Shown one piece after another: positions 1,894 to 19,467 of a stretch of 54,831 nt of DNA. The position numbers were made by a program, and so were the translations under genes. This stretch comes from Desulfobacca sp. (GTDB lineage: Bacteria; Desulfobacterota; Desulfobaccia; Desulfobaccales; Desulfobaccaceae), in contig DYEV01000017.1 of NCBI GenBank assembly GCA_020725545.1, positions 1-54,831 on the forward strand, read 5' to 3'. Under the pieces are notes generated by a model that saw nothing but the letters and a program-made list of their open reading frames with translations, had not been told where the DNA came from and ran no database searches. Position 1 is the first letter of the stretch; each line of letters begins with the position of its first letter.

Positions 1894-1895
1894 GC

Positions 1896-4145
1896 TTAAC
1901 TTAATAACGAAGCCTGGATCTTTTGGAGCAGAGGATGGTGCGGGTCTATCTTGGCGGCTTGCTCCACCCACATCTTGGCGGCTTGAGGTGATAGAATATC
2001 CCGGGATAATCTGGCCAATTCCAATAAGGTCTGGAGTTTCTCAGCGGCCGGCATCTTTTTCGCCACGTCTTCATAGCGACCCCCGGCAGTTTCCAGGAAT
2101 TGCTGGGCCTGATCGCGCCGGTCGAAGCGGAGGGCAAAATCGGCCAGGGCAGTCAGCGTATACAGATTTTGGCCCCGGCTTTGATTAATTATTCGACGGA
2201 AGCACTCGGCCATCTGTTTCTGGTCGCCCTTGGCATCATAGCACAGACCCAGGACATGCCAAGCCGGGATGTTTTCGGGCCAGCGCCGAAGTAGGGTCTC
2301 CAATTGCTCCTGGGCCTTCTCTGCCTCTCCGGTCTGGAGCCACAGGTTGGCCTGGGCGACGAGCAGGCGGGGATTGTGGGGCTCCACCAGCAGAGCCCGG
2401 GCCACATATTCCTGGGCCAGGGCAAGGTTGGGATGGTCCAGATTCTCCCGGTTCAGGAGGGCCAGCTCCAGGAGAACGGCGACATTTTCCGGGGCCAGTT
2501 CCAGGGCCCGGTGCAGATGCTTGGCGGCCTCCTGCCATTGCCCGCGCCTCCGGGCCATATTTCCCAGGGAATGCAGGGCATACAGATTGCGCCGGTCCAG
2601 TTGCAACAGCCCCTGCCACGCCGTCTGAGCTTCCCCCCATTCGCCCCGGAAAAAATGCCAGCGGCCCCGGACATGCAGCACATAGATATTGTTCTTGCCC
2701 GGATCAAGCCGCTCTGCCTGCTCCACGTCCTGGTAGGCCTTCAGCCACTCGCCAGCCTCCAGATACATATCAGCCCGGGCTACCAGGGCGGGGATATTGC
2801 CAGAATCCAACCGCAGAGCCTGGGCAAAACACATTTCCGCGCCGCGGGAGTTCTGGCGTTCCGCCTCGAAGACGCCCCGGGCCTGCCAGAGATAAACGTT
2901 TTGGGGAACGGCTTCGCAGGCATCTGTGAAGGCAGCTCCGGCTTCCTCCTGCCGGGAAAGATCGACCTGGCTCCAGCGACTCAGCAGATGGGCCCGGGCC
3001 TGGAGCAGATAGACATTGCGCTGGTCTTGTTTGAGGGCGGTCTCGACAACCTCCTTGCCTTCCTTAAAGAGCCCGAGCCGCCCCAGACACTGGGTCCAGA
3101 TCAGGCGCTCCGCGGCGCTGCCGGCGTGGCTAAAAGTTTTGATCTGCTGCCAGTGCTTCGTTACCAGGGTGCGGATCTGGGAGAACTGAAAGCTCGTCCC
3201 CAGGGACCAGCGCCAACGGCTGTGGGCCAGCCAGCTTTGCAGGAGTTTTAGGATAACGTAGCGCTCCTCCCGTTCGGTAGACCGGCAGGCAGAGAAGAAC
3301 AGATCGTAGCTGTCCAGGGCAAGACCGCCGGCATCGGCCAGGATCCGGAAAAATCGCCGGGCATAGCCTTCTCCACGGGTGGACACCAGGAGAGCCGGAG
3401 GTTTCTCCCGCTCCACCCAGAAAAGAATGCCCTGCTGCGAGGCCTCCTCCACCACCTCGGCCAGGGTGTCCGGGTCGGCTTGGCTTAATTGCGCCAGCAG
3501 CTCCAGGGGCAGAGGCACGTCCCAGGCGTCTCCCAATACCACCCAATAGTGAGCCTGGCGCAGGATAGTGTTTCCCGTCTCTGCCAAATCCCGGTAAATC
3601 TGGTCGGTAGCGCCTGCTTCCCGCCGGGCAAAATCATTCGCCAACTGTTCCGGCTCAGATGAAAAATCGATAAAGTCCGGGAAGTAAAGGCAGGGAAGCT
3701 TCAAAGGCTGCTCTTCCCACATCTCCGCCGGTCCGGTGGCGATGGCCAGTCGCCCCGGCCTGACCCAACCCTCCAGGGTCAGGGCCAGGTTATGAAAGAG
3801 CGGGGCCTGGTGAATAATCCATACATTGACGCCTTCGCCCGGCGGGGGCAAATACGGCTTATCCAGGAATTGGGTAAACTGCGCCTGTTGCTTTTGCCAT
3901 AACAGCTCCCCGGCGATCAAACAGAGGAAATTCAGAAGCGTATGTTCCGCTTGAGGGGCTGAGGGAAATATGAGGACGCCGCCGGTATTTTGCCAACCCG
4001 GAATCGCCGCCAGGGTTTTTTGCCGCAGTTCCTGCAATTTTTCCAGATCAAAGAGATGAGCTCCCCAAACCGGTCGACCTTTCACATACAGGGAAGTCCA
4101 GTCTGGGAGGTCGTCTAACTGCTGCAGATAACTTGGGATAAACAT
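1896..4145 (-). CDS. Degenerate STAND-like / TPR-repeat protein in the CRISPR operon
   Basis: 749 aa. From about residue 330 to the end it consists of tandem helical TPR repeats, roughly ten, with the usual pattern (for example NIPALVARADMYLEAGEWLKA and WHVLGLCYDAKGD). The first 200 residues look like a P-loop NTPase of STAND type that has lost its motifs. A VLIFPSAPQAEHTLL stretch sits where Walker A should be but lacks the GK[ST]; VWIIHQAP replaces Walker B; RLAIATGP resembles a sensor strand. A winged-helix-like segment follows (about 205-265). This domain reading is inference. The chosen ATG at 4145 has GAGG ten bases upstream; a TTG at 4154 is also open. It overlaps the gene before it by 31 bp and abuts cas6, so it is translated as part of the CRISPR operon. 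It has no CHAT protease domain, so it is not the TPR-CHAT protein of type III-E. Confidence 0.8.
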   Translation of the reverse strand: MFIPSYLQQLDDLPDWTSLYVKGRPVWGAHLFDLEKLQELRQKTLAAIPGWQNTGGVLIFPSAPQAEHTLLNFLCLIAGELLWQKQQAQFTQFLDKPYLPPPGEGVNVWIIHQAPLFHNLALTLEGWVRPGRLAIATGPAEMWEEQPLKLPCLYFPDFIDFSSEPEQLANDFARREAGATDQIYRDLAETGNTILRQAHYWVVLGDAWDVPLPLELLAQLSQADPDTLAEVVEEASQQGILFWVEREKPPALLVSTRGEGYARRFFRILADAGGLALDSYDLFFSACRSTEREERYVILKLLQSWLAHSRWRWSLGTSFQFSQIRTLVTKHWQQIKTFSHAGSAAERLIWTQCLGRLGLFKEGKEVVETALKQDQRNVYLLQARAHLLSRWSQVDLSRQEEAGAAFTDACEAVPQNVYLWQARGVFEAERQNSRGAEMCFAQALRLDSGNIPALVARADMYLEAGEWLKAYQDVEQAERLDPGKNNIYVLHVRGRWHFFRGEWGEAQTAWQGLLQLDRRNLYALHSLGNMARRRGQWQEAAKHLHRALELAPENVAVLLELALLNRENLDHPNLALAQEYVARALLVEPHNPRLLVAQANLWLQTGEAEKAQEQLETLLRRWPENIPAWHVLGLCYDAKGDQKQMAECFRRIINQSRGQNLYTLTALADFALRFDRRDQAQQFLETAGGRYEDVAKKMPAAEKLQTLLELARLSRDILSPQAAKMWVEQAAKIDPHHPLLQKIQASLLS

Positions 4146-5809: not shown

Positions 5810-7855
5810 CTATAAAGTGGCTTGTCGCCTGTCCAATGCTTGCATGACCAAATTTTTCAACATATTCGGTTGGTTTAGGAGGCTCAGATTAATTTCCAGA
5901 GGTTCGAATTTAATGCTCGCTATGGCCCATTCTATGGCCTCATTATGGTTGATACCGGGTCTTATCAGAACCGGCAGGGTAAACCTTCCCAATTGGGATC
6001 TGGCCTCAGCGACAATTTCGTTCCGCACCGCTTCCCAGTCAAGGTCTGGAGGGCTCGTGCTCTTGCAGGAAATGGCAATATACTGTCCTTGCCATTGGAG
6101 AACAATATCGATTTCCGATCTGAAATAATTCTGTGGCATAGGGTGCAGCCAGGCCCAACGAATCCCCACCGTTAGATCGGAAATCTTTTTCCCGCCGGCG
6201 GCCAGAAAGGCCCCGGCCACCGCTTCTTCTAGCCAGTGCCCGAAGTCACCGAAACTGGTCACGGTTCCTTCCAGCTTATTCCCATTATTACAGGCTTGAA
6301 ATTGGATTTTCTCTGCGCTAGGAAAAACATCAACGCAGGTAATATAATTGCTGTCGTCTACTTGAATTTGCTCTCCTGCTTGCCAGCATGGCGGCCAAAA
6401 ACGTTTTCTCGGGTTACGTTTAACCTGTTTTGCGACGACATTAATCAGGTTCGAGAGAAAATTTTTTTTTGTCGAAATTTCTACGAGGCTGATACCCTCT
6501 GAGACCAGGCGCCCCCCGACACAAGCCGCCTGAATGGCGATCTCTGGAAAACCAAAATTGCGAGGGCACAAGCCTGGACCAGGAACCAGGGGCTGGATAC
6601 TTTGTGACTGATTATAGAGAGACCATAACCTCACGTTCGGCAGTCTCGCCAAATTCCAGGACTGAGCCTTTGTGCCCGGTGAGATGTTTAACTCCCAAGA
6701 ACCATCTTGAAGCAGATTTCCAAAAGCCTCCGGGTCCTCAATCCTGCCTTGCATATTCGTGGGCCAGAATATCATAGATTGACATTTCACATAATCCCTG
6801 ATGAGGAAGAGGCGGTGGGCCATGACCTTTACCCAAGGGGTTTCCCAATCAACCAGGATGATGGCTCTCTGCGGTGCGTGGCTATAAAGAGCCAACAGCG
6901 TGGCGCTGGGATCGGCCCCCAAAGCTACGATCAAACCTGTCCCATCCTGCCAATCGCCTTTGCACCGGTATGATTCTTTCAGTTTATCCGCCGGGAGTTC
7001 TGAATCTTCTGGGCCGGGTAACAGTTGCCCAGGGGGCTGGTTGAGATTCTGCTCCCAAGTGTCGGCGGTCTCAACGCCTTTTATCCCGTATGTGGCCGCC
7101 CGCTTCAGCATGAGAGTATCGTTGCTCAAAACAGTTAGGATTGGGCGTAATTGCATGATATGGTGCGGTGATTCCAGCAGAGCGGCGACCCGGCGGCACT
7201 CTTGTTTCAGACGGTGATTTTCGGACTCTTTAACCGCAGTGGAGTCTCGCCACAGCCGCACCAACCCATGCAGCCGGCCTTTCCGCTCCACGGCTTTGAG
7301 TAAGGCGAGGGGCGGAGGGGGGGTGAGAATGATTTTCAGGTTGTTCACTTCCTTATCAGAGTCGTTGACCGGCGGCTGCGTGGTGAGCCCATGCAAATCC
7401 AGCAGGGTCTTCAGCCCGATGTCCACCAGCTCCCATTTCTGCCCATCTTCTAAACTGTGCAAATAATTAAAATCTGCGTAGAGGGGCTTAATTCGGGGTT
7501 CGTCCTTAAGGTGATGGGAGATGAGGGCCACTTGGTAGTTGAGGCCAGGAGAAGTGTCATAGTAGATGGGCTCCGACAGCCCGCCCCCATTGATCTTCTG
7601 CCGGATAATATTCCAGGCTAAACTGTTTTGATCAGCCGTGGTCGTATCCAGGGCAATGAAGAGTGGCTCCACGGCCAAATTGGAGGCTAGATTTTGTAGG
7701 TAGGACTCCAGCCGCTGGGCTTCGGTTTTGGTATCCTTCGTATAAAGGAGAATGACCCGTTCAAGGGGATGATTAGTATCCATCTCCAGCAAGGTCCTGG
7801 CCGTGACGGCCACGGCGGCGGGCTGCTGGCCCACCAAGGTTATGAGTGTACTCAA
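5810..7855 (-). CDS. Can1-like CARF-domain nuclease (type III CRISPR effector)
   Basis: 681 aa. The N-terminal domain has CARF features: an ILSTLITLVGQQPAAVAV strand-helix start, ILLYT, and a ligand-loop motif DTSPGLNYQ near residue 100. A second Rossmann-like region follows in the middle (GLIVALGADPSATLL...), consistent with tandem CARF domains. The C-terminus is a PD-(D/E)XK nuclease: an E in HWLEEA (about 540), EIDIVL (about 580) and ISCKS (about 597). This order and length fit Can1, which nicks DNA when bound to cA4. I choose a TTG start at 7855 because it overlaps the cmr6 stop as TTGA and has GGAGGG seven bases upstream; the longer ATG frame would run 94 bp into cmr6. Expected activator: cyclic oligoadenylate from Cas10. 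Confidence 0.88.
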   Translation of the reverse strand: MSTLITLVGQQPAAVAVTARTLLEMDTNHPLERVILLYTKDTKTEAQRLESYLQNLASNLAVEPLFIALDTTTADQNSLAWNIIRQKINGGGLSEPIYYDTSPGLNYQVALISHHLKDEPRIKPLYADFNYLHSLEDGQKWELVDIGLKTLLDLHGLTTQPPVNDSDKEVNNLKIILTPPPPLALLKAVERKGRLHGLVRLWRDSTAVKESENHRLKQECRRVAALLESPHHIMQLRPILTVLSNDTLMLKRAATYGIKGVETADTWEQNLNQPPGQLLPGPEDSELPADKLKESYRCKGDWQDGTGLIVALGADPSATLLALYSHAPQRAIILVDWETPWVKVMAHRLFLIRDYVKCQSMIFWPTNMQGRIEDPEAFGNLLQDGSWELNISPGTKAQSWNLARLPNVRLWSLYNQSQSIQPLVPGPGLCPRNFGFPEIAIQAACVGGRLVSEGISLVEISTKKNFLSNLINVVAKQVKRNPRKRFWPPCWQAGEQIQVDDSNYITCVDVFPSAEKIQFQACNNGNKLEGTVTSFGDFGHWLEEAVAGAFLAAGGKKISDLTVGIRWAWLHPMPQNYFRSEIDIVLQWQGQYIAISCKSTSPPDLDWEAVRNEIVAEARSQLGRFTLPVLIRPGINHNEAIEWAIASIKFEPLEINLSLLNQPNMLKNLVMQALDRRQATL

Positions 7856-9141
7856 GATTGACCCTCCGGCGCTACGGTCATTTCCCCATACCCCAATGCC
7901 GTCTTGGCGCCAAGCCCAAATTCGCCCAGAGCCCGTGTCAGCCACTGACCCGCTATCTCCAGAAGTTCCTTATCCTGGGAGGTAAGCAGGAGCTGAAAGG
8001 TGACGCCCGGGGCCACGGTGAGGAAGTAGTTGGGCACCGGGCTGTAGTAGTCGGCGGGCGGATTGTGTTCCGGATCGCTGTAATATTGCTGGTAATGGAC
8101 ATTGATGATGTCCAACTCAAAGAGCTGCCCCTGAACCTGAGGAAAAGCATCGTAAAAGCAGACCTCGCCCCGACACTCCTGGCTGCCGAAGATCTGGCGG
8201 TAGTGGCAGCTCGCCTCCTCCTCCCAGACGTCAAAGAAGGCTCCTGGTTTGCCGGAGAGAAGGTCCCCTTGGGGATAGTCCTGGAGATACGGTAAGGTTT
8301 GAATCTTCTGCCACACTTTTTGCATCTCCTCTTTGATCTTCTTCAGTTCCTTCTGCAGAACCTGGCAACTCTTCCCTGCCCCTGGGAAAAGAATCAGCTT
8401 TTCCAGTAACTCCAAGGGGGTGAGTTTTTTGGGTTTGCTCTCATGCAGGTTATTGATATCCTCGGGCTGCAGGCGGGGGATACCGAATTTTGCCGCCAGT
8501 TCCGCCAAGGCCCAGGAGCGGCAGATCCCCTTGAGGGCCGTGCCCGGCAGGTAAGGCACGCCGTACAGCCGGTGCAGAGTCAGGCCGGTCTCCAGGGGCG
8601 TGGTGTTGCCGAAACCGATGGACAGACGCGCCCCGGTCTTGGCCGTCCTGGCCCACAATTCCAGGCCGGAGATATTTTTTAGGGTCTTTAAAGTGTTTAT
8701 CAGTTCCTGCTGCCGCTGCCAGCCATGTGAAGCGGCGCCTTGGGCTCGCAGACGGTCGGCCAGGGACACCAGGTCTTTCCATAAATTCTTCTTGTCAATC
8801 TCGGTGAATTGTTCATCCTGATATGGCAGCAGGCGCTGCAGGGCCAGGGAGAAATTATCGCATTTCTTCCAAGCCAGCGCATCATCCCCACGAACATCCC
8901 GGGGCAGAGGAAATATGGTCTTGGCCTGGTTGGTTGGCGAGGGGCTGTTGCCACCCGAGCCGGTTTTTCCCCCCGGCTTGCCCTTATATTTTTGCTTCCC
9001 GCTCGACGGCGAGGCCGCAGCCAGAGGCTTCGGGGCCGCAGCCGCGTTTAAACGCCTTTGCCAGTAGGGAGAGGCTTGGGAGGGGCCAGAGGCTTCTTGA
9101 AAACGCGACGCGGTTGGTTGGTTGGCTTCCCGGTCGGCCAT
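7852..9141 (-). CDS. cmr6: Type III-B RAMP protein Cmr6
   Basis: 429 aa. RAMP-superfamily subunit that caps the backbone of the Cmr complex near the crRNA 3' side. Family hallmarks are TGLTLHRLYGVPYLPGTALKG, a mid-protein FGSQECRGEVCFYDAFP segment, and the C-terminal G-rich loop LGAKTALGYG. It is longer than usual because of an N-terminal tail of about 90 residues that is low in complexity (Ala, Ser, Pro, Gly, Lys) and probably disordered, plus a lysine-rich helical insertion around 240-270. The start follows the cmr5 stop by three bases. The 3' end overlaps the Can1-like gene by four bases, which suggests coupled translation. Confidence 0.93.
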   Translation of the reverse strand: MADREANQPTASRFQEASGPSQASPYWQRRLNAAAAPKPLAAASPSSGKQKYKGKPGGKTGSGGNSPSPTNQAKTIFPLPRDVRGDDALAWKKCDNFSLALQRLLPYQDEQFTEIDKKNLWKDLVSLADRLRAQGAASHGWQRQQELINTLKTLKNISGLELWARTAKTGARLSIGFGNTTPLETGLTLHRLYGVPYLPGTALKGICRSWALAELAAKFGIPRLQPEDINNLHESKPKKLTPLELLEKLILFPGAGKSCQVLQKELKKIKEEMQKVWQKIQTLPYLQDYPQGDLLSGKPGAFFDVWEEEASCHYRQIFGSQECRGEVCFYDAFPQVQGQLFELDIINVHYQQYYSDPEHNPPADYYSPVPNYFLTVAPGVTFQLLLTSQDKELLEIAGQWLTRALGEFGLGAKTALGYGEMTVAPEGQS

Positions 9142-9144
9142 AGC

Positions 9145-9585
9145 CTAAGCCTCCTCCGTCTTGGATTCCAGTCCGCTGACCACCAGCTTGAGATAGTTCA
9201 GAAGTTTTAAGGTTTCCACCGTGGCCCGGAGATAGGTCCGGCTGTTGTTTTCCCGGATTTGTGCCAGGAGGACCCCCGCGTTATAGTCCACCCCATAGGG
9301 CGGGGCATAGTGGTCGAAATCAAGGTTGACATCACTCTTGGTCAGCCAGCGCTCCAAGTGTTCCAGGAGCAGTCCCTCGGCATTTTTGCCCTGCTTGGTC
9401 TTCTTGGCCGCCAAGGAGGCCAGGGCCTGACCCAGGCCGTTGGCATTCACCATAGCCGGGAACTTTCTCACCAGGGCCGCATACCGGGAAAAATCCCCCT
9501 TTTGGGCTTCCGTGGCAAACTGAAATGCCGCCCAGTAGCGCATCTGCTCCAAAGTCTGCCGTTTCGATGGACTTGCCCCGTTCAT
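9145..9585 (-). CDS. cmr5: Type III-B small subunit Cmr5
   Basis: 146 aa all-helical small subunit of the Cmr effector, forming the minor filament along the target RNA. The N-terminal QTLEQMRYWAAFQFATEA helix and C-terminal YLRATVETLKLLNYLKLV helix are characteristic. The length fits the family. The start codon overlaps the cmr4 stop as ATGA, and cmr6 begins three bases after the stop, so it is translationally linked on both sides. Confidence 0.93.
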   Translation of the reverse strand: MNGASPSKRQTLEQMRYWAAFQFATEAQKGDFSRYAALVRKFPAMVNANGLGQALASLAAKKTKQGKNAEGLLLEHLERWLTKSDVNLDFDHYAPPYGVDYNAGVLLAQIRENNSRTYLRATVETLKLLNYLKLVVSGLESKTEEA

Positions 9586-10544
9586 GACGTCCCTCCCGGA
9601 GACACGGCATAATACCGGAGCCGCACCAGGCCCCGACCCACGGTCTCGTCGCCACCCATTTGCAGGATCTTGCCCTCACGGATAATGTTCTGCAGAAATT
9701 CCATGCTCTTCTGGGCCTCCTGCCGGCCGTTGTTCTTCAGGGGAAGATTCTTGGCCAAGGCCAGGGAGTAAAGCAGGGTGTCGGCCAGGAGCAGCTCCTG
9801 GCTCCACAGGGCGCCGCTTTCCACCGTGCCGGTCTCGCCGATGCGGATACGGGTCACTACTTCGGTGGAAAGATTGACAAAATCCTGAAAATAATCATCA
9901 GGCACCACCACCAGGGACTTTTCCAGGCGGTTTTTGATATAGCCATAGACCGTTTCGCATGGCATGGCATTATCTTTTAGCCAGGTAGCCAGCCGGCCAA
10001 TGGCCTGGGTCTGACTGACATCCTGTTCCAGAGCCATATCCTCCAGGATGACCTTGCCGATTTGTTGACCATCCTCTTTCAGGGCTACCTGACACGGGTT
10101 GGCGGTCAAAGCCTTGTCATCCAAAGGCTGGAGCTCGGCGATGGCCTCCATGACCTCACCTGCCTCTCCCAGCATGTGCAGCCGGCGCCGGAAGCGTTCC
10201 AAGACCATGGGGCAGGTAATCCAAGCAAACCCGCCCGCAAAGGACCGCACCGGGAAGAGCAGCACCTGGGCATCGGTAAAGGCCAGAGAGCCGCTGTGGT
10301 CGCTGGTCTGTTCCGTGGCGGGGCCGAAGACTCGGATGATTTCTTGCCGTTTACCATTGTCTGACCCGTACAGTCCCTCGCTCCAGTCCCGGCAGGCCCC
10401 CTTGACGCCGCTGGCCTGGATAATGGGATAGTTGGTATGCCGCTCCCGTTGCAGGGGCAGGTCCACGTGGGAAATATTGGTGCCGCTGCCGGCGTGCAGG
10501 GGCGTTTCGCAGTAGAAAAAGACTATGGCTGCTTTTTTGAACAT
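9582..10544 (-). CDS. cmr4: Type III-B backbone RNase subunit Cmr4
   Basis: 320 aa RAMP protein that forms the repeated backbone of the Cmr complex and cleaves target RNA at 6-nt intervals. The conserved loop LHAGSG...HVDLPLQRE is present; D28 in VDLPLQRE corresponds to the catalytic aspartate known for this family, so the subunit should be an active RNase. YPIIQASGVKG is the following family motif. I use the ATG at 10544 because GGGAGGG lies five bases upstream; the frame is open to 10568, but that would overlap cmr3. Confidence 0.94.
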   Translation of the reverse strand: MFKKAAIVFFYCETPLHAGSGTNISHVDLPLQRERHTNYPIIQASGVKGACRDWSEGLYGSDNGKRQEIIRVFGPATEQTSDHSGSLAFTDAQVLLFPVRSFAGGFAWITCPMVLERFRRRLHMLGEAGEVMEAIAELQPLDDKALTANPCQVALKEDGQQIGKVILEDMALEQDVSQTQAIGRLATWLKDNAMPCETVYGYIKNRLEKSLVVVPDDYFQDFVNLSTEVVTRIRIGETGTVESGALWSQELLLADTLLYSLALAKNLPLKNNGRQEAQKSMEFLQNIIREGKILQMGGDETVGRGLVRLRYYAVSPGGTS

Positions 10545-10561
10545 CCTATCCCTCCCGGTGG

Positions 10562-11737
10562 TTACCACGTCCCCACGGCCGCCAGGCCAAAACTGGCCGC
10601 CGCCTGGAATTTATAATGTCTCATGAGGCTCTGAAAATGATAATGATTGATCAAAGTTAGGGCGTCGGCCTCAGTCAGCGCTTTCTCCAGCTCAAAAAAA
10701 TAAACGCTCCCCGCCGCCACCGCCCGCCGCAGCCGCCGGGGCGTCTGGGCAGCCAGATTCCAGCCTCCCACAGGTTCAGCCTTCCCCACCGCTGCCGCCA
10801 CCAGGGTGCCCGCCAATCCTTCCAGACGCCAGGTGCAGTCCGCAGGCTCCACATCATCCGGCAGCCACCCGGCCCGGAACAAGGCCGGGGTCATAAGATA
10901 AAGCCGGAAGCGATTCTCCCCAACCAGGGCAGCCTGCAATTCATCCCGGTGCGGCGGCAGCACCTCTGCTGAGAAAAGATCCGGCAACTCGTCCGCCTCA
11001 AGCCGTTGAAAATAAGCCGCCCGGGCCTCACCCCCCAAGGGCAGAAAACCCTGCTCCGGCAGGAGGTCGGCGACATCGCCGCTGCTATTGACCTCCACCA
11101 GGAGCGAGGCCCCCGCCGTCAATCGGGTAAATTCAACCATATAGATCTGCCCGGTCTCCGCGGTGCGCTGCGGCGTCAGGCGGATACCCAAACGCGGCTC
11201 GGGGATGGCTATTTCGGTTTGCCGCAGGATATCGGGCTCTGGGCGCCGCAGCAGGTAGGCCAAGAGTCTTTTCCCACGGAGATACAACGGTGGGCCTTGA
11301 TCCTCCGGCGATTTTACCCCCTCGGTGCGGCTTACCAGCTGGTACGGCAGGCTTGGCGGCGATAATGCCAACCCCGGCCACGCCGGCTCCACGGGCCGGA
11401 GGTAATCGGGATACATCTCCCCTCCCGTCTGCTTGCTCACCAGGATATCTTTGGGGGTTGGCAAGAGTGTCTCCTGACCTCCGAAGGAATCCCGCCCGAC
11501 CAGAAAAGGACCCCGAAAACGCAACTGACCCAGGTCATTCGGCCCGCCCAGCCGGTCATCCCTTTGGAACCCGGTGTGGTCCAAGTTCAGGTGGTAAAAC
11601 ATGGCGGCTCGCAGCGCCCCGGCCATGGTCAACGGCGTTGGCGGGAACTGACTGGCCGCCCGGATCACCTCCCCGGCGGTAAACGGGCGGCTGCCCCGAA
11701 ACAGCAACACATCCATTGGTTCTATTCTGAGCCACAT
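10562..11737 (-). CDS. cmr3: Type III-B RAMP protein Cmr3
   Basis: 391 aa subunit that binds the crRNA 5' handle and pairs with Cas10. The N-terminus MWLRIEPMDVLLFRGSRPF followed by PPTPLTMAGALRAA is diagnostic for Cmr3, and the C-terminal half shows the expected FRAGWLPDD region. It lies two bases after the cas10 stop and 17 bp before the chosen cmr4 start, in the usual cas10-cmr3-cmr4 order. Confidence 0.94.
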   Translation of the reverse strand: MWLRIEPMDVLLFRGSRPFTAGEVIRAASQFPPTPLTMAGALRAAMFYHLNLDHTGFQRDDRLGGPNDLGQLRFRGPFLVGRDSFGGQETLLPTPKDILVSKQTGGEMYPDYLRPVEPAWPGLALSPPSLPYQLVSRTEGVKSPEDQGPPLYLRGKRLLAYLLRRPEPDILRQTEIAIPEPRLGIRLTPQRTAETGQIYMVEFTRLTAGASLLVEVNSSGDVADLLPEQGFLPLGGEARAAYFQRLEADELPDLFSAEVLPPHRDELQAALVGENRFRLYLMTPALFRAGWLPDDVEPADCTWRLEGLAGTLVAAAVGKAEPVGGWNLAAQTPRRLRRAVAAGSVYFFELEKALTEADALTLINHYHFQSLMRHYKFQAAASFGLAAVGTW

Positions 11738-11739
11738 GG

Positions 11740-14634
11740 TTAGTCTTCCTTTCCCGCCAGGAACCGGCCCAACAGGAGGAGCTGCGTCAGGACCTCCCAG
11801 GGATCAAGATGTGATAACTCTGTCCTCTCTCGCTTTATATTACCCAGCAATTGCCAAATACCGTGCAGTGTTGCCGTGACTCGCTTCTGCGCCCCGGTCT
11901 TGCTGTGCTGTTTGGCCAGGCGGCCAACTTCCAGTTCCTGGGCTCGGGCCAGATCAAACTGGAGGGTTGACGGCATCGCCAGCCCCGGCGCCCAGCGGTG
12001 CTCCGCCAGCCGGTAAGGCAGGCGGCTGGAAAGCTCGTCCGCGGTCAAAAGCCCAACAATTTCGGCCAAGGCTTTCAAGGAACGGCAGGTATGGCTGTGG
12101 GGATCATAAGCAAAAGGCAGGCCGACCTCGGTGCTCTCCCCGGAGCGGCGCAGCAGCCGCACGGCCCAGGCATCCCGCCCCAGCTTCTGCTTGGCGGTCT
12201 TTTTTAACACTTCCGGGGCCAGTTCCAGGGCGTGATAGAGGGGATAGGAATGATGTACAATGATGGCTGCCATGCTGAGGGTCATGCCCTCGTGCGGCTC
12301 CTCGCCGGGGACGCCGGGGCGAACTCCTCCCAACAGGCGGCGCCACCGGCCCTTAATATCTTGATGGTCTTGCCGCAGGCCCCGAAACCCTTGATACAAC
12401 CCCTGCATTACCGGCAACAGGTGCGCCAGGGGCAGCAGGGCCAGGACATCGTCACCGCCGGCATAGATGAGTTTGCCGGCATGTTTTTCCTCCACCAGGG
12501 GACGCGCCTCATAGAGGGCGAAGTTCTTCAGGCTGTCGCTCAGAGCCAATTGCAAAGCCGGGCCTAGAGGCCGCGGGTAATTACTTACCGGCCACAGTCC
12601 CTTAAGGAGGTCATGCTCACGGACCTGGGGATGCAGCAGCCAGCGGAACTGCGGCGCCCTTTGGCCGGTGACCCATTCGCCCATCTTGTCCCCGTCCAGG
12701 GCCAGGATGGCGTAATACTTGGGTGGCGCATCGATGCCGGCGCTCTTCTTGGCCTGCGCTAACAAGACTGCCGCCGCCTCCTGGCACTCCTGGCGTCCTG
12801 ACGGATCGTGCAAGCCATAGGCTTGTTTCAGGGCCGCTTCTTCAAAGGAGTCGGGATAAAGCCAATCGCCATCCAGGCGCAAAAAAGCAATGCCGTTATC
12901 CACCTTTTGGCACCGCTGCGTCAAATAGTTTCCCGCAGCCGCCGGATAGGGCAGGTTATGATTCTCGGCGAATTTGGCGACTGCTTTGGTGTAGGTTGTC
13001 AATGCGGTGGCCAGATCGCCTTGCTGTTCCTTGACCGCCTCCAACAACCGGCCCCGCCAGGCCGCCGTGGCGATGCCCGCGGTGGAGGGAAAGAGGTGAT
13101 GATCCAGTTGTAATTCTTTTTCAAAGAAGGCTTCCAGAGCCAGACGCCGGGTGAGGCAGATGCTGCACAGGCTCTCGCCTTTGCGGATGCGGCCCAGGAG
13201 CTTCTGGCCGGACGCCCGGTCCAACTCCCCCAGGGCTTGCCAAAACTCCCGCAGCCAGCGGTAACTGTGGCGCTCAGCCGCTGGATTTTCCTTGATGACC
13301 CGGCTCTCAATCCGGTCAGCCACGGCCGGTATGGCCGCCAGGGTTTCCCAGGATGGATGCAGCGCCTCCCAGTCGCCGCACAGGGAGCATTTGTGCCCCG
13401 GTTCTTCCACCTGTTGGAAATCCCGCAGGTTTTTCCGGGCGGTCAGGGCCCGGCCGGTCAAACCGGATAGGAGGTGAAAGGTCTGGCCCACATGCAGCTC
13501 GTAACCTCGGGTCTGTAAGTTCCGGAGAAGTGTTTTAAAGTTATTGATCACGTCGGGTTTGAGGTCAGGCTCCACTGCCTTGATCACCGCCTCATGGTTA
13601 TTCCCCAAGGGGCAGACCACCCAATAAATGCCCAAACTGTCAATAAACTGGGCGGCCTGGCGCTCCCAGATCGCCTCCAGACCTGTATCGACTACCCTCC
13701 AGCCATTCTTTATAGCTTCTGTCACCCGATCGCGTACCTTGGTGGTCACCCTCTGCCAGCCCTCCGCCACTGCCTGGGCCGCTTTTTCAGCCAACTCCCC
13801 GGCGCGCTTAGCCGGCACCAGGGCCGCAAAGATATTGGGGATGCTGCCGATTTCCAGGGCCGACTTTTTCGGCGCCGCCAGCCCCGCTGCCCCCAAACCT
13901 TTCTCCTGAACCAGCCAATGGTCAACCAACGGCTGCTCCCGCAAGGACGGCGACAGGATGGCGTCCGGGCCGCAGACTTCGGCCACCGCCTTGATGGCCT
14001 GCCAGGAGAGGTATGAGAGCAAGTAGCTTCCCATCCAGGCGTCCTGGGTGCGCCGGGCCACGCTCACCGCCTTCTGGGCCGAAGCAATAGTGAAGAGCAG
14101 GATGGCCGGCTCCGGCAGCGCCCCGGCCACTGCTGATGCGACTGCGGCCTGTTCCCAGACCGTGTGCGACGGTATGCGGGGGTCGGCCGGCAGGATCTGC
14201 CACAGCTGCCCCAGCCCGGTGGAATCATCCTTAGCCAGCAGCTCCGGCAACAGCCGCCAGAGGGCCAGGAACAGGTGCTCGTCGTTTGAAGTTTTGGACT
14301 TCAGGTCCATCAGGACAGCCAAAACTTGTTGGCGCAGGGCGTCGGCAGAGAGCTCCTGGGGAAGGTGCAGCGGGATTTCCTGGGCCGACAAAGGATGTAT
14401 GAGGCATGGCTGCCGCCGGAAACAATCTTCCGGCAGGCCCTGGACAAAGGGTGGGATATCCAGGCCCGCGGCCAGGGCTGAACTTTTTACCACCGCGGCC
14501 AGATCAATGCCGCTCCCCGCACCCAAGATGGCAGCGAACAACTCATCCCGATGCGCTTCAGCCTCCACCGGATAGAGGGAATAATAAGGCAGACGATGGA
14601 GGAAGGTGGCGATCTTGGTTTGCCAAATATTCAT
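11740..14634 (-). CDS. cas10: Cas10 (Cmr2), cyclic oligoadenylate synthase subunit
   Basis: 964 aa large subunit of the type III-B complex. The second Palm domain keeps an intact GGDD at residues 726-729, with LDGDKMGEW in the preceding Palm strand region, so cyclic oligoadenylate synthesis should be possible. Two CxxC pairs (KCSLCG near 412 and LCSICL near 490) form the zinc-binding region. The N-terminal HD nuclease looks lost: the expected HD reads H-R (FLHRLPYYSLYPVEAEAHRDE), with no clear HD motif elsewhere in the first 100 residues. Target DNA cleavage by Cas10 itself is therefore doubtful. Its ATG overlaps the cmr1 stop by four bases. Confidence 0.95.
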   Translation of the reverse strand: MNIWQTKIATFLHRLPYYSLYPVEAEAHRDELFAAILGAGSGIDLAAVVKSSALAAGLDIPPFVQGLPEDCFRRQPCLIHPLSAQEIPLHLPQELSADALRQQVLAVLMDLKSKTSNDEHLFLALWRLLPELLAKDDSTGLGQLWQILPADPRIPSHTVWEQAAVASAVAGALPEPAILLFTIASAQKAVSVARRTQDAWMGSYLLSYLSWQAIKAVAEVCGPDAILSPSLREQPLVDHWLVQEKGLGAAGLAAPKKSALEIGSIPNIFAALVPAKRAGELAEKAAQAVAEGWQRVTTKVRDRVTEAIKNGWRVVDTGLEAIWERQAAQFIDSLGIYWVVCPLGNNHEAVIKAVEPDLKPDVINNFKTLLRNLQTRGYELHVGQTFHLLSGLTGRALTARKNLRDFQQVEEPGHKCSLCGDWEALHPSWETLAAIPAVADRIESRVIKENPAAERHSYRWLREFWQALGELDRASGQKLLGRIRKGESLCSICLTRRLALEAFFEKELQLDHHLFPSTAGIATAAWRGRLLEAVKEQQGDLATALTTYTKAVAKFAENHNLPYPAAAGNYLTQRCQKVDNGIAFLRLDGDWLYPDSFEEAALKQAYGLHDPSGRQECQEAAAVLLAQAKKSAGIDAPPKYYAILALDGDKMGEWVTGQRAPQFRWLLHPQVREHDLLKGLWPVSNYPRPLGPALQLALSDSLKNFALYEARPLVEEKHAGKLIYAGGDDVLALLPLAHLLPVMQGLYQGFRGLRQDHQDIKGRWRRLLGGVRPGVPGEEPHEGMTLSMAAIIVHHSYPLYHALELAPEVLKKTAKQKLGRDAWAVRLLRRSGESTEVGLPFAYDPHSHTCRSLKALAEIVGLLTADELSSRLPYRLAEHRWAPGLAMPSTLQFDLARAQELEVGRLAKQHSKTGAQKRVTATLHGIWQLLGNIKRERTELSHLDPWEVLTQLLLLGRFLAGKED

Positions 14635-15764
14635 AGAAGCTGATGTGCTCCCTTATCTCTCAAGATCTTGAGAAAATCATTTATGGCACGGTAATTGGGA
14701 AAATCTACATCCTGGATCACGCCTCCAGAGATCCGAATTTTTTTCCCTCGAGGAAGGAATTGCGCCGGCAGGAAAACTACCACCCCCATAGCCTGGCCGT
14801 CGTGCAAACCCTGGACGTGCAGGAACAGAGGACTAGCCCGACGACCTTTATTGCCCCCTTCCATCAAATCCACCCCCGCTTTCGAACCTTGACTGCGAAA
14901 AAAATAATTATGGGGCAGGCCAAAGGCCGATCGGGCAGGAGCAAATTTTGGGATGATTTTGCCATGTAAATAATCCAACATCAAATCGTGATCTTCCTTG
15001 GCAACTCCAGAGGTTTTTCTCGTTTTCGTTTTAAAATCAATGTAATACGAGCGATAATCTTGGAAAACTTTGTTCAAACCTTTTAGAACCATCATACTTG
15101 ACTTTAAAGCCGGTCCATAAATTATCTTGCTGCTTTTACTGAAATAAGAATAATTTGGCATGCTTGCCGATAGAGGTACATCTTTCAAAAAGTTCTGCAC
15201 ACACTTGACATACTCTTCAGTACTTATTAAGCGCCATCGCGGTATATAATTTTCGAGTTCTTTATGAATTCCCGAAAAACCAACTACTTTAAACGAACCA
15301 AACCCTCTGCGGCTGCGGGCCCCCAGGCCGCCAAACATAGCCAAGGCCCAAAAGGAACGCAGGATCTTAGCCCTGTCTGCTAGTCCCAACGAACTGTTGA
15401 AAGTGATGGTCAATTGCAATTCGGTGCCGCAGTCCAGACCTGGCCGAGTTGTCAGGTTTTTTTGGGCATTCTTGTCATAGCCCACCACACCATACCCAAG
15501 ATATGCGAAATCATGCAGTTTATCACTATTGGCGACTAGCGGTTTTGGCTTTAAAACACTCGTAGATAACCGCACAGGCGATTTGAACTCAGTATTCCCA
15601 AACAGCCTCCCCTCCTCCTGCAATGTATCCGGATATATCGCCCGGTACCAAAACCGCAGCAGGCCCTTCAGGCTGGCGGCCCGGAACTCCGGGGGGCCGT
15701 TTTGGTCGGCGCCGCCCATGAACATGGGAGTCACCAGTTCAATGTCAAAGGTAATCTTTTCCAC
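14631..15764 (-). CDS. cmr1: Type III-B RAMP protein Cmr1
   Basis: 377 aa RAMP subunit at the 3' side of the crRNA. The N-terminus has the family motifs: ITFDIELVTPMFMGG, then FRAASLKGLLRFWYRA and LFGN, and further on GGLGARSRRGFGSF. The start is GTG (15764) with GGAG nine bases upstream. Its central part is more AT-rich than its neighbours. It is the first cmr gene of the operon, 72 bp after RT-cas1, and overlaps cas10 by four bases. Confidence 0.94.
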   Translation of the reverse strand: MEKITFDIELVTPMFMGGADQNGPPEFRAASLKGLLRFWYRAIYPDTLQEEGRLFGNTEFKSPVRLSTSVLKPKPLVANSDKLHDFAYLGYGVVGYDKNAQKNLTTRPGLDCGTELQLTITFNSSLGLADRAKILRSFWALAMFGGLGARSRRGFGSFKVVGFSGIHKELENYIPRWRLISTEEYVKCVQNFLKDVPLSASMPNYSYFSKSSKIIYGPALKSSMMVLKGLNKVFQDYRSYYIDFKTKTRKTSGVAKEDHDLMLDYLHGKIIPKFAPARSAFGLPHNYFFRSQGSKAGVDLMEGGNKGRRASPLFLHVQGLHDGQAMGVVVFLPAQFLPRGKKIRISGGVIQDVDFPNYRAINDFLKILRDKGAHQLL

Positions 15765-15836: not shown

Positions 15837-18155
15837 TCACCATTTTCCCACATACGGCCGAAAAGCCGTTTTTTTCTCCAGATGCTGCCGCAGGTCTTTC
15901 ACCTGGGCCTGAATAATCTCGCCCAGCTTCAGTTCCCGGCCCCGAAAGGGCTGGATGATCGCCAGGCGTCCTTCCACTTGCCGGACCAGTTCTTTCCGGC
16001 TCTCCAGGGTCAACCTGCCTTCCTGGTCTAGTTGGAAAGCCTCCCGACGGCGGCGCAGTTCCGCCAGCACCACCCGATCCACTACCTGGGGCCGGAAGAG
16101 CTCCATCAAATCATAGGCCAAGGTCGGCTCCTGGCGGCGGGCGGCGTGCAGGAAGCTGATATACGGATTGAGCCCGGCGTTATAGATGGCGCCCAGCACC
16201 CGGGAGCGCAGCACCGCGTAGCCATAGTTGAGCAGACAGTTCACCAGGTCCGTGGCTCCCTGGTGTTCCCGGCGGGGAAAATCAACGCCACCGGCCAGCA
16301 ACAGTTTGACCATCTCCCAGTAGTGGCTGGCCAGCCTCCCTTCGATGCTGAACAGACGTCCCCGGGTCTGGGGCCAGTCGCCGTTGGGCTGCAAGCCGTT
16401 AGCCTCAGCCACCAGTGAAGCCGCAGCCTCCAAAAATCGCCCATAGGAGCCATTAAAAGAGCCGTTGCGGCGGTTTTCGTATTTGCCGAAATACTTGATC
16501 AAATTAATCTGATTTTTGATCTTCCCCAGTACCAGGGCTCGGGCCAGGGGAAACGCCTGCCGGACATCATGGGCTGCTTCCAGTTGCCGCAGCTGCAGGG
16601 CCGGCGCGGGTGAGCCTGGCCCCTGAATAAAGGCCTCGATGTCTCCTTTCGTAGATATCCAACTGATGGGGACGCCTCGGCCGGCGCAGTGAGTAATGAG
16701 ATCGGAAGAAAGAGAATTGGAGTGGGACAGCAGGGTGATGCTCTCCAGACAATTTAACATCACTTCGTAGAGAGTCTGCCGCTGCTGCCGCACCACCAGC
16801 CGGCTGCCCTGTTTGCCCAGAAACAGTCCGGGGGTGTTGATCACCAGATTGGCCACATGGAGGAGCTGGCGCACCCGCCGCCGCTTCTCCTGGCGGACTT
16901 TTTTCGTGACCTGCTTACTGGTCTGCTTCTCCTGGCGGCAGTTCTGGGCGGCTTGCCTGGCCTGGTTGAGCAGCTCCTGCAGAAAGGCCTGTCTCTCGGC
17001 TCCGGTCTGGCAGGCAGGGATCTCTAAACATTCCAGAGCTTTCTGCGCCGCCTCGATTTCGGGCCCGTTAGGCCCGACAAAGATTTTTGCCAGCCGCGGC
17101 ACGCAGGCTGCCTGGAGTTCCTGCTGCAGCCGGCTCATTTCCCCGGGCTCTACCAGGGCACCGTAGTAGCGCTGCCACCCGGCCACCGATTCGCTGAGCT
17201 GACGGACGGCCGGCTCATAGGCGCCGGGCTTCAGGCCCTGGGCCAGGTGGTGCAGTTTGTGATGGATGGTGCCCCACTTGGCCGGGTCGATGACCAGTTT
17301 GCCCTCGGTAAAATGAATGCCCAGGAAAGTAAAACCGGAACTGACGGGGTTCACCGGCTGCGGGTTCTGGTTCAGCCGCAGTTTGAGGTGAGATCGCAAA
17401 AAATCGCTGACCGCGGCGTACAAAGCCTCGCCTTCCTGGCGTTCCCGAGTGAACAGCCTGATATCATCGGCATAACGGATGAAGTCCGGCGCGTGCTCCT
17501 TGACAAAGAGATCCAGGGGGTGCAGATAGATGTTGGCCAGCAGGGGCGAAACCACGCCGCCCTGGGAGACGCCGTGATACACATCCAGCCAACGCCCGCC
17601 GGTATTCACCACACCCATCTTCAGCCAGAGGAGCAGCAGACGGCAAACGGGCTCCTCAACCCGGTAGGAGCGCAGCTGGTCCATCAGGATGTCATGATCG
17701 ATGCTGGGGAAAAATTCGTCGATATCCAGGGTCATCACCCAGCCGGGGCGGCTGGTCTGCAGAATATGGGAGACTCGTTTGATGGCTTTCTGGGGTCCCT
17801 TGCCGGGGCGGTAGCCGTAGCTGTTATCCAGAAATCGGGAGTTGATCTGAGGTTCAACAATCCGGCGGACCGCCTCCTGGGCCACCTTGTCCCGCACGGC
17901 CGGCAGGCCCAGGACCCGCTTTTCCCCCGGCTGCGATTTCGGGATGGCCACCTGGAGCAGAGGTTGGGGGACATAGGACCCGGTAAGCAGTTCTTCCCGG
18001 AGAGTGTCCAGCTCCCTGAGCTCGTCCTGGGAAAAGTCGGCCACCGTTTTGCCGTCGGCGCCCCCGGCCGCTTTTCGGGCCAGAATCCGCCGCCAGGCCT
18101 GCCGCAGGTTGTCGGGGTCGACGATCCGGGAAAGCTGATAATAGTTGGTCTGCAT
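15837..18155 (-). CDS. cas1: Reverse transcriptase-Cas1 fusion
   Basis: 772 aa. Residues about 1-330 are a group II intron-like reverse transcriptase: fingers motif KRVLGLPAVRDKVAQEA, DIDEFFPSID, GVSQGGVVSPLLANIYL and the catalytic Y228-A-D-D. A linker with charged coiled segments follows. From about 433 the protein is Cas1, with the metal ligands in place: E in FSIEGRLASHYWE, H in ISFLHAARR and the acidic DLMELFRP. It should integrate spacers and, by analogy with studied RT-Cas1 proteins, may acquire them from RNA. I choose the second of two adjacent ATGs (18155); the frame is open to 18380 but its upstream part translates repeat DNA. It has no N-terminal Cas6 domain. It heads the operon, divergent from the array. 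Confidence 0.95.
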   Translation of the reverse strand: MQTNYYQLSRIVDPDNLRQAWRRILARKAAGGADGKTVADFSQDELRELDTLREELLTGSYVPQPLLQVAIPKSQPGEKRVLGLPAVRDKVAQEAVRRIVEPQINSRFLDNSYGYRPGKGPQKAIKRVSHILQTSRPGWVMTLDIDEFFPSIDHDILMDQLRSYRVEEPVCRLLLLWLKMGVVNTGGRWLDVYHGVSQGGVVSPLLANIYLHPLDLFVKEHAPDFIRYADDIRLFTRERQEGEALYAAVSDFLRSHLKLRLNQNPQPVNPVSSGFTFLGIHFTEGKLVIDPAKWGTIHHKLHHLAQGLKPGAYEPAVRQLSESVAGWQRYYGALVEPGEMSRLQQELQAACVPRLAKIFVGPNGPEIEAAQKALECLEIPACQTGAERQAFLQELLNQARQAAQNCRQEKQTSKQVTKKVRQEKRRRVRQLLHVANLVINTPGLFLGKQGSRLVVRQQRQTLYEVMLNCLESITLLSHSNSLSSDLITHCAGRGVPISWISTKGDIEAFIQGPGSPAPALQLRQLEAAHDVRQAFPLARALVLGKIKNQINLIKYFGKYENRRNGSFNGSYGRFLEAAASLVAEANGLQPNGDWPQTRGRLFSIEGRLASHYWEMVKLLLAGGVDFPRREHQGATDLVNCLLNYGYAVLRSRVLGAIYNAGLNPYISFLHAARRQEPTLAYDLMELFRPQVVDRVVLAELRRRREAFQLDQEGRLTLESRKELVRQVEGRLAIIQPFRGRELKLGEIIQAQVKDLRQHLEKKTAFRPYVGKW

Positions 18156-18201
18156 CATACCTGAAAGAACCCAGCCCCCCGCCTTTTTCGTGCAGCCAGC
18201 G

Positions 18202-18578
18202 GCAAAAGTGTTGCGAAAATTTCGTATTGCCCATATTTGATAATCTCTTCGCATAGTTAAGCCGATTTTGCGCCGTTTGGGGCCCTTTGGGTAGAGGCCG
18301 AAAAGTTCGCAAAAGCCCCTTTTGGCCAGCGCGGCCCGGAGGTGTTGCGAAAAAACCGCCGGAGCCCGAAAAACGGCCAAGACAACATTTTGTTATTCCT
18401 GCTATAATTTGCGGCCCTGGCTGGCCCCGGAGGCCGATTTTCGCAAATGGCCTTTTTTCCGGGGCGCAGCAAAAGTGTTGCGAAAATTTGGAGTTAACAA
18501 TATCAATGAGTTAGGCCAAAAAGGGCGGTTTTAGGCAGAAATTGCCGGGGGCAAAAAGGGGGTTTTGCGAAAAAAACC
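18202..18578. repeat. Repeated TTGCGAAAA elements upstream of RT-cas1
   Basis: A 21-bp sequence ending in GTGTTGCGAAAATTT occurs exactly at 18202-18222 and 18469-18489. Shorter forms lie at 18342-18357 and 18563-18578. Near three of the copies is an inverted partner: TTCGCA at 18248-18253, TTCGCAA at 18306-18312 and TTTTCGCAA at 18438-18446, each 28-37 nt away. The region would be the 5' untranslated RNA of the cas operon on the minus strand. It could be a set of regulator sites or a structured RNA. There is no convincing coding sequence here. Confidence 0.75.
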
Positions 18579-18594
18579 GGGAGAGAAAAATCTC

Positions 18595-18623
18595 TTGACA
18601 CGGCGGCCGGATAGCTTTAGAGT
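18595..18623 (+). promoter_or_regulatory. CRISPR leader promoter
   Basis: A perfect sigma-70 -35 box TTGACA (18595-18600) is followed after 17 bp by TAGAGT (18618-18623), matching four of six -10 bases. It reads toward the array and ends about 38 bp before the first repeat, as expected for a leader promoter. The repeat orientation (3' end ATTGGAAAC) agrees. Confidence 0.7.
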
Positions 18624-18661
18624 ATTTGCAAGGAGGTTTATAACCGGTTGAAATGACCGGG

Positions 18662-18980
18662 GAAGCACTGGAGGAATTCCCGTTAGGGATTGGAAACTTA
18701 TTAATGCCTCATTTGGCGTTAAGCCATTTAAGGGAAGCACTGGAGGAATTCCCGTTAGGGATTGGAAACAGATTTAAAATTAAAAAACAAAAAATTGTTT
18801 TCATGGAAGCACTGGAGGAATTCCCGTTAGGGATTGGAAACACCGTGTCCCCAGTATCCTTCTTCAGGCTTTGAGAAGCACTGGAGGAATTCCCGTTAGG
18901 GATTGGAAACGCATGTAATAATGATCGCAACAGAAATGGAAAAAGAAGCACTGGAGGAATTCCCGTTAGGGATTGGAAAT
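18662..18980 (+). CRISPR. CRISPR array, 5 repeats and 4 spacers
   Basis: 36-bp repeats begin at 18662, 18734, 18806, 18875 and 18945. Each starts GAAGCACTGGAGGAAT and ends GGGATTGGAAAC. Spacers are 36, 36, 33 and 34 bp. The repeat can fold TCCC-gtta-GGGA, and cleavage at the base of that stem leaves exactly eight bases, TTGGAAAC, the usual type III handle length. The last repeat ends in T instead of C, marking the leader-distal end. The array is short, and its spacers are more AT-rich than the flanking DNA. It lies between the divergent RT-cas1 and cas2. Confidence 0.98.
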
Positions 18981-19013: not shown

Positions 19014-19467
19014 GTGTTTCTGACCATCTCCTACGACATCACTGACGACCTGCGCCGCCAGCGGCTGGCCAAAGTTTTAAGCAATTTCGGCTACCGGGTC
19101 CAGAAAAGCGTCTTTGAACTGGAGAATGATGCCGGGAACTTCATACATTGAAGGAAAAAATTGAGGCGACGATTGACTGGGAGGATGACCGCGTCGGGAG
19201 TATTTCGTCAAGGTGTTTCCCAGGGAAAATGCCAAATTGCCGGGGAACTGGGCCGATGTTCGCCTTTCCTGGGGGACCGAACCCGCAGGATCACAGAGCC
19301 TGATTCAAGAACTCCTCATTCTTGCGAAAAAAGTCGGCGCTGTCCTTTACGATGGACAGATTAAAAAAGTCATAACTCAGGATAACATCCCCGACGCCGT
19401 CGCCAGCCTGACTAGAGGCGGCACGTGGGTGAAAAAAGCCTTGGGATTTGCCAACCCCCCGGAATGA
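19014..19467 (+). pseudogene. cas2: cas2, disrupted by two frameshifts
   Basis: A GTG at 19014 opens a Cas2 N-terminus (FLTISYDITDD, then the arginine-rich helix and FGYRVQKSVFELEN) that stops at 19149-19151 after 45 codons. The Cas2 reading continues one frame over as LKEKIEATIDWEDDRV, then shifts again near 19196 to EYFVKVFPRENA. One missing base at each point would restore a single frame. After the expected Cas2 end the last frame stays open to 19467 (LIQELLILAKKVGAVLYDGQ...), which I do not recognise and which may be a second gene fragment. Either cas2 is dead or the sequence has two base errors. Its partner RT-Cas1 looks intact. Confidence 0.75.

What the first reader, a model, noticed from the sequence alone, without database searches (positions are those of the whole stretch)
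18160..18594. Repeat-rich leader upstream of RT-cas1 that could fold into several hairpins
Four TTGCGAAAA copies occur in 370 bp, two within a perfect 21-bp repeat about 267 bp apart. Three have an inverted partner 28-37 nt away. This lies in the non-coding DNA between a reverse transcriptase gene and the array, where a template RNA, regulator sites or a decoy could sit.
Basis: seen in the sequence. Interest (0 to 1): 0.6.

Follow-up and report, generated by a model that had tools for sequence, protein, structure and literature searches.

The report
Spaced private-word sites in CRISPR leader
The DNA in front of this bacterium's CRISPR memory array carries six copies of one short word at set distances from the array, and distantly related systems use different words at nearly the same distances, which suggests landing sites for the protein machine that writes new memories.

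Summary
The 502-bp leader between divergent RT-Cas1 and a 5-repeat array holds four direct TTGCGAAAA copies, one exact inverted copy and one 7-base inverted partner. Five of the genome's 27 copies lie in this leader.
The hairpin reading is weak: RNA folding is ordinary (z -1.45).
What is there is a layout. Leaders of other RT-Cas1 loci (Desulfobacterota, Brocadiales, Ignavibacteria-class genomes, an Arcobacter plasmid) repeat their own word: TTTGCGAA, TTTTCGAA, CGTGAGAAAA, ATGAGAAA or AGTTTGAAGA. Order and distances are similar: the nearest copy is about -104 (sd 9) from the first repeat, the next about 99 bp further, and inverted copies lie 33-41 bp upstream of direct ones. An untuned test is positive in 13 of 19 RT-locus arrays, 0 of 31 leaders of cas1-selected arrays and 1 of 12 non-RT type III arrays. 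Words follow the RT-Cas1 tree; one genome with two RT-Cas1 systems uses a different word in each leader. The window has a perfect IHF consensus between its two nearest direct sites.
Best reading: a folded docking platform for spacer integration, read by the locus's own adaptation proteins. Binding and function are inferred. A simpler two-site version sits at -57 and -146/-158 in 12 of 46 other leaders.

The parts
18563..18573 (+). site D1 (TTTTGCGAAAA), word starts -97 from first repeat
   Evidence: exact for the 9-mer
18476..18486 (+). site D2 (TGTTGCGAAAA), word starts -184
18438..18446 (-). site I2, inverted exact copy (TTTTCGCAA on +), word -223, 39 bp upstream of D2
18343..18353 (+). site D3 (TGTTGCGAAAA), word starts -317
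18306..18314 (-). site I3, inverted copy (TTCGCAAAA on +; 7-base core TTGCGAA exact), -356, 39 bp upstream of D3; assigned by position in relatives
   Evidence: core list; sequence
18209..18219 (+). site D4 (TGTTGCGAAAA), word starts -451
18501..18513 (+). perfect match to the IHF consensus WATCAANNNNTTR (consensus recalled), TATCAATGAGTTA, -161, between D2 and D1
   Evidence: chance 0.04 per leader of this composition
18595..18623 (+). sigma70-like promoter TTGACA-17-TAGAGT, probable array promoter
   Evidence: 10 of 12; consensus match only
18160..18661 (+). CRISPR leader, 502 bp
18662..18980 (+). CRISPR array, 5 repeats of 36 nt, GAAGCACTGGAGGAATTCCCGTTAGGGATTGGAAAC
15837..18158 (-). RT-Cas1 fusion, 773 aa
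   Evidence: RVT_1 3.9e-28, Cas_Cas1 4e-64
7852..15764 (-). type III-B effector genes (RAMP, Cas10/Cmr2, Cmr3, RAMP, Cmr5, Cmr6)
1024..1971 (-). Cas6
19014..19200 (+). broken cas2: about 36-44 residues of Cas2, then the frame is lost
   Evidence: tblastn to five Cas2 proteins

Best explanation
The leader is a multi-site docking platform for spacer integration. Each copy of TTGCGAA(AA), about 13-16 bp with its flanks, would bind a protein made by the same CRISPR locus, most simply the RT-Cas1-Cas2 integrase itself. Four direct sites (D1-D4) and two inverted sites (I2, I3) would be folded towards the leader-repeat junction, with IHF bending the DNA between D1 and D2 where its site is present, so that new spacers enter only before the first repeat. 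Shown here: the sites, their order and spacing, restriction to the leader side, the word following the RT-Cas1 tree, two different words in one genome, and an IHF-like site at a repeated place. Inferred: which protein binds, the folding, and the role in integration.
For: (1) An untuned 8-mer test is positive in 13 of 19 arrays at RT loci: 11 of 16, L018/L146, L222 but not L292. (2) The layout is anchored on the first repeat: D1 mean -104, sd 9, 0 of 5000 random placements as tight; 13 of 15 inverted copies lie 33-41 bp upstream of a direct copy, random mean 0.69, max 6 (the 13 positive leaders). (3) Conservation is confined to about -5..+11 around the word and flanks are at background, so it is not a decayed tandem duplication. 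(4) In 13 loci the words occur 53 times in 7.2 kb of leader and 3 times in the other 192.5 kb. (5) Words follow the RT-Cas1 tree (the tree's deep forks are open). (6) G407 (Candidatus Kuenenia hertensis by the titles of L018/L020) has two RT-Cas1 loci: TTTGCGAA at 6 places and TTTTCGAA at 0 in one leader, TTTTCGAA at 7 match positions (some overlapping) and TTTGCGAA at 0 in the other. This speaks against one host regulator. (7) Exact IHF consensus in 4 of 15 leaders, all at -161 to -176, about 1 expected anywhere in all 15; 1-mismatch matches at that place in L144, L131 and L127. (8) Effector modules differ: Cmr genes at the window and L222, other RAMP proteins at L127/L144/L147, so the layout goes with RT-Cas1.
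Against: No binding or integration data. Marinomonas RT-Cas1/Cas2 integrates in vitro into substrates with 20-40 bp of leader (PMC11014452, passages) and Thiomicrospira Cas6-RT-Cas1-Cas2 works with 163 bp (PMC8102632, passages), so such sites are not needed for chemistry in that Cas6-fused clade. Six of 19 RT-locus arrays failed the untuned test; L292, L038 and L069 show nothing. Absolute positions beyond D1 vary: full-position concordance of 15 leaders 141 vs random mean 91.6 (max 143 in 2000), and in 8 lineage representatives 64 of 3000 slides did as well. Helical phasing is only suggestive (15, 520 and 488 of 5000 for the three intervals). cas2 beside the array is broken, so this locus may not acquire now.
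Confidence: 0.55

Rival explanations
1. The sites are operators of a transcription factor that controls array (pre-crRNA) transcription, with looping between distant operators.
For: In the window D1 lies about 30 bp upstream of a good -35 box; multi-operator looping is common (recalled). Csa3a in Sulfolobus binds a leader-distal motif and activates array transcription (PMC9456107, abstract and passages).
Against: Outside the leaders the words are almost absent, 3 in 192.5 kb, although several cas operons lie in view. No regulator family is shared by the loci: ORF clustering of 22 loci found only RT-Cas1 in all, then Cas6 (10), RAMP-like (8) and Cas2 (8). Two different words in one genome. Promoter scores and positions scatter in other leaders.
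Confidence: 0.25
2. The locus factor does both: it binds the leader words, regulates the array and releases or recruits the integrase, as proposed for Csa3a and Cas1.
For: A published precedent links a leader-distal motif, a transcription factor and Cas1 activity (PMC9456107, abstract and passages).
Against: No Csa3-like or other DNA-binding family found in the loci, but genes outside the fetched stretches were not examined.
Confidence: 0.1
3. Structured leader RNA, an RT template or decoy.
For: I2/D2 and I3/D3 are complementary and change together between systems.
Against: Fold z-scores -1.45, -1.37, -0.99, 0.46; no Rfam match; unpaired D1 and D4 carry the same word; L137 and L222 have few or no inverted copies.
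Confidence: 0.04
4. Decayed tandem duplication or chance repetition in a low-complexity leader, no function.
For: A degenerate unit of about 133 bp can be aligned three times in the window.
Against: Shuffle and placement tests, background identity outside the word, recurrence in unrelated leaders with other words.
Confidence: 0.03

Closest known systems
Type I-E / I-F leader: IHF sites plus upstream motif / integrase anchoring site
   Same: DNA bending and an upstream sequence contacted by Cas1-Cas2 set the integration site (recalled; cited in PMC10212523 and PMC9602844 passages)
   Different: Those elements lie within about 100-200 bp and are few (recalled); here one word is repeated about six times over 450 bp in both orientations and differs between systems
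Type I-D leader motifs I-III (Kieper 2019, seen only through the review PMC10212523, passage)
   Same: Several motifs in a long leader (202-220 bp) enhance spacer uptake; one resembles the integrase anchoring site
   Different: Described as three motifs, not copies of one word in that passage; shorter leader; no RT
Sulfolobus I-A leader-distal motif bound by Csa3a (PMC9456107)
   Same: Distal leader motif (-143 to -94) needed for full acquisition
   Different: One distal region and a dedicated factor; no such factor found here
Type II-A leader-end motifs (PMC5382924, abstract)
   Same: Leader motif classes mirror Cas protein clusters, i.e. private words co-evolve
   Different: A single motif at the 3' leader end
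Lambda attP arm-type sites with IHF sites (recalled)
   Same: Repeated sites in both orientations plus a bend site around an integration point
   Different: Different integrase chemistry; analogy only

Membership tests
RT-Cas1 type III-B CRISPR-Cas locus | RT and Cas1 domains in one protein | tested here: met
RT-Cas1 type III-B CRISPR-Cas locus | Cmr effector genes with Cas10/Cmr2 | tested here: met
RT-Cas1 type III-B CRISPR-Cas locus | intact cas2 beside the array | tested here: not met
   frame lost after about 36-44 residues; another cas2 match on contig C27 of the same genome
Leader with IHF-dependent integration (I-E / I-F kind) | IHF consensus in the leader | tested here: met
   window exact match at -161; 4 of 15 leaders exact overall
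Leader with IHF-dependent integration (I-E / I-F kind) | IHF actually required for integration | not testable with these tools
   needs experiment; ihf genes not searched
Leader with IHF-dependent integration (I-E / I-F kind) | upstream motif contacted by Cas1-Cas2 | not testable with these tools
   indirect only: word follows the RT-Cas1 tree
Six-site RT-Cas1 leader layout (defined here) | at least 4 copies of one word, nearest at -80 to -115, inverted copies 33-41 bp upstream of direct ones | tested here: met
   window: D1 -97, I2-D2 39 bp, I3-D3 39 bp
Structured RNA / RT template | fold more stable than shuffles, or Rfam match | tested here: not met

The most novel reading that the evidence does not exclude
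CRISPR leaders of RT-Cas1 systems, and in reduced two-site form many other type III and some other systems, are attachment-site-like platforms built from a private word that each adaptation module reads for itself. The geometry is conserved and the word is free to drift, so several CRISPR systems in one cell keep their spacer integration apart. RT-Cas1 modules use a larger platform (D1 near -104 rather than -57, six sites rather than two).
Probability: 0.35. Interest if true: 0.82.

Novelty: new variant of a known kind. Interest (0 to 1): 0.64.

Why it matters
How type III and RT-Cas1 integrases find the leader-repeat junction is poorly understood; the papers read here use 20-163 bp of leader (PMC11014452, PMC8102632, passages). 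A 450-bp layout with fixed geometry and changing words gives exact, mutable sites for footprinting and acquisition assays, and predicts that leaders shorter than about 460 bp are incomplete in this clade. Private words would explain how co-resident systems avoid writing into each other's arrays. No description of this layout was found in nine searches of an open-access library, which lacks most subscription papers and the most relevant leader survey.

Tried and rejected
RNA hairpins / template RNA: folding ordinary, no Rfam hit. Decayed tandem duplication: a 133-bp self-alignment exists, but identity drops to background outside the word. Dispersed genomic repeat: the 11-mer is found only here. 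A shared regulator gene: none found by ORF clustering. The third inverted partner at 18246 was dropped as it has no counterpart in relatives. Close relatives of RT-Cas1: the two single-sequence scans gave none (genome contigs, viral contigs); plasmids gave none at E 1e-80. Helical phasing: only D1-D2 suggestive. Sample: the 13 leaders that passed the untuned test; L135, L129, L141, L038, L069 and L292 were left out, orientation was normalised so the nearest copy counts as direct, L138 uses its second-ranked 8-mer, and L146 positions were corrected for the true repeat start. L135 and L129 show the layout only by eye with chosen words. Structure prediction and fold search were not used. Of the type III loci listed, two of three planned batches were fetched (40 stretches).

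Full report
WHAT IS IN THE WINDOW. Positions 18160-18661 are the non-coding leader between a divergent RT-Cas1 gene (15837-18158, -) with type III-B cmr genes behind it and a 5-repeat CRISPR array starting at 18662. The word TTGCGAAAA occurs four times on + and once exactly on -; six occur in the whole window against 0.55 expected and 27 in the 2.94-Mb genome, five of them here. The extended TGTTGCGAAAA is found nowhere else in the genome. A sixth site, TTCGCAA at 18306, shares the 7-base core. The leader also holds a TTGACA-17-TAGAGT promoter match at -67 and a perfect IHF consensus (consensus recalled) at -161.

RELATIVES. No close homologue of this RT-Cas1 was found. Distant ones (27-37% identity) came from a genome-contig scan with a 4-sequence profile, from genome searches of the family, order and phylum and of two other classes and from an Arcobacter plasmid. 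Reading their leaders showed each repeating its own word.

UNTUNED TEST. For each array I took up to 560 bp on each side, counted the commonest non-low-complexity 8-mer on both strands, and compared it with dinucleotide shuffles. Positive means at least 4 copies and no shuffle reaching that. At RT loci 13 of 19 arrays were positive on the leader side: 11 of 16, L018 (same locus as L146), and L222 but not L292. Failures were L135, both arrays of L141, L038, L069 and L292; L038 and L069 were not confirmed as RT-Cas1 fusions. Of 13 trailer sides one was positive, because the array itself continues there (L144). Controls: 50 flanks of 31 arrays near cas1 genes without an RT fusion gave 2 positives, one a split array (L193) and one a trailer side (L219). 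Twelve arrays near cas10 without RT gave 1 positive, L289.

GEOMETRY. In the 13 positive leaders the nearest copy lies at -82 to -114 (mean -104, sd 9; 0 of 5000 random placements as tight). Thirteen of 15 inverted copies lie 33-41 bp upstream of the next direct copy (random mean 0.69, max 6). In seven lineage representatives the D1-D2 distances are 87, 97, 99, 120, 98, 99, 96 (0 of 5000 random sets as tight). The window reads D1 -97, D2 -184, I2 -223, D3 -317, I3 -356, D4 -451. Over the full leader the concordance of 15 curated leaders is 141 same-orientation pairs against 91.6 expected (max 143 in 2000), and weaker in 8 representatives (64 of 3000 slides as good), because D2-D3 and D3-D4 distances vary by tens of bases. 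Identity between copies falls to background beyond about -5..+11 of the word.

WORDS AND THEIR READER. Words group with the RT-Cas1 tree: TTCAAACTTT (= AAAGTTTGAA) in one Desulfobacterota group (support 91/91), TGAGAAA/AGAGAAA in one Ignavibacteria-class group, TTTGCGAA/TTTTCGAA in one Brocadiales group; deep forks, including the window's place, are unresolved. G407 carries two RT-Cas1 loci, and each leader has its own word and none of the other's. Words are nearly confined to leaders: 53 in 7.2 kb against 3 in 192.5 kb of neighbouring DNA. Across 22 loci the only family present in all is RT-Cas1; Cas6 follows in 10, RAMP-like in 8 and Cas2 in 8. These facts point to a reader encoded by the locus, and RT-Cas1-Cas2 is the simplest candidate. 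This is inference.

IHF. Exact WATCAANNNNTTR matches occur in 4 of 15 leaders (window, L147, L146, L090), all at -161 to -176 between D1 and D2, and one-mismatch matches at that place in L144, L131 and L127; about one exact match would be expected anywhere in all 15. The five Bacteroidota-class leaders, L145, L222 and L129 lack an exact one.

A WIDER PATTERN. A sensitive search for 12-mer pairs in 46 other leaders (15 from type III or divergent RT loci, three of them RT-bearing; 31 from the cas1 set, one a split array) found 12 with a pair at -55 to -62 and -145 to -160. The same leaders shifted by 100, 200 or 280 bp gave 0, 0 and 1; reverse complements 0; 20 trailer sides 0; ten shuffled replicates 1 hit in all. 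Words such as AGGTTCGCGCAA, AGGTATGCGGAA and GAGGTTTACTAA resemble the RT-clade words (GGTTTGCGAA, GGTTTTCGAA). L141 and L289 add an inverted third copy about 95-100 bp further up (read by eye). The six-site leader therefore looks like an enlarged version of a more general two-site leader.

MECHANISM AND RIVALS. Proposed: the locus's integrase, or a Cas partner, binds the word; multiple sites, inverted pairs and an IHF bend fold about 450 bp of leader into a complex that presents the leader-repeat junction. Main rival: operators for array transcription. Against the rival: absence of the word from cas promoters in view, absence of a shared regulator gene, two words in one cell. Against the proposal: no binding data, in vitro integration by Marinomonas RT-Cas1/Cas2 with 20-40 bp of leader (PMC11014452), and a broken cas2 at this very locus.

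LITERATURE. Type I-D leader motifs through a review passage (PMC10212523); the Csa3a distal motif (PMC9456107); type II-A leader-end motifs (PMC5382924, abstract); I-F leader mutants and IHF (PMC9602844, passages). The RT-CRISPR origin paper (PMC5513706, term search) mentions leaders once, in general terms. [quoted passage not shown]

Noticed in passing
12 leaders incl. L274, L280, L283, L218, L219 (positions -57 and -146/-158): A two-copy version of the leader word at fixed distances in non-RT CRISPR leaders, with system-specific words resembling GGTTxxxxGAA.
   Followed up: partly
window 19014-19200: cas2 next to the array keeps about 36-44 residues and then loses its frame; the array has only 5 repeats. 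Decay or assembly error not distinguished.
   Followed up: partly
window 18643-18659: Dyad ACCGGTTgaaatGACCGG just before the first repeat; folds as a 6-bp stem. Could be a leader-end anchor.
   Followed up: no
window 18630-18870: By eye, AAGGAGG followed by ATG at 18653 opens a frame that runs through the first repeats, because repeat plus spacer is 72 nt twice. Probably chance.
   Followed up: no
window 5810-7945: 711-aa ORF with weak Csx1/CARF matches at both ends, no Pfam hit; possibly a two-CARF ancillary effector.
   Followed up: no
L131:6785-7909 and L149 (G001, G004): A 375-aa protein without Pfam match is encoded just upstream of RT-Cas1 in two relatives.
   Followed up: no
G000:C27:10068-10922 and G000:C32:66050-66454: The window's genome holds a second cas1 (with a cas2 match nearby) and a second cas10; no array was found in the stretches fetched around them (L182, L253).
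   Followed up: partly
L219 trailer side of array 8344-8892: CTCTGTGC seven times in 560 bp on the non-leader side; unexplained.
   Followed up: no
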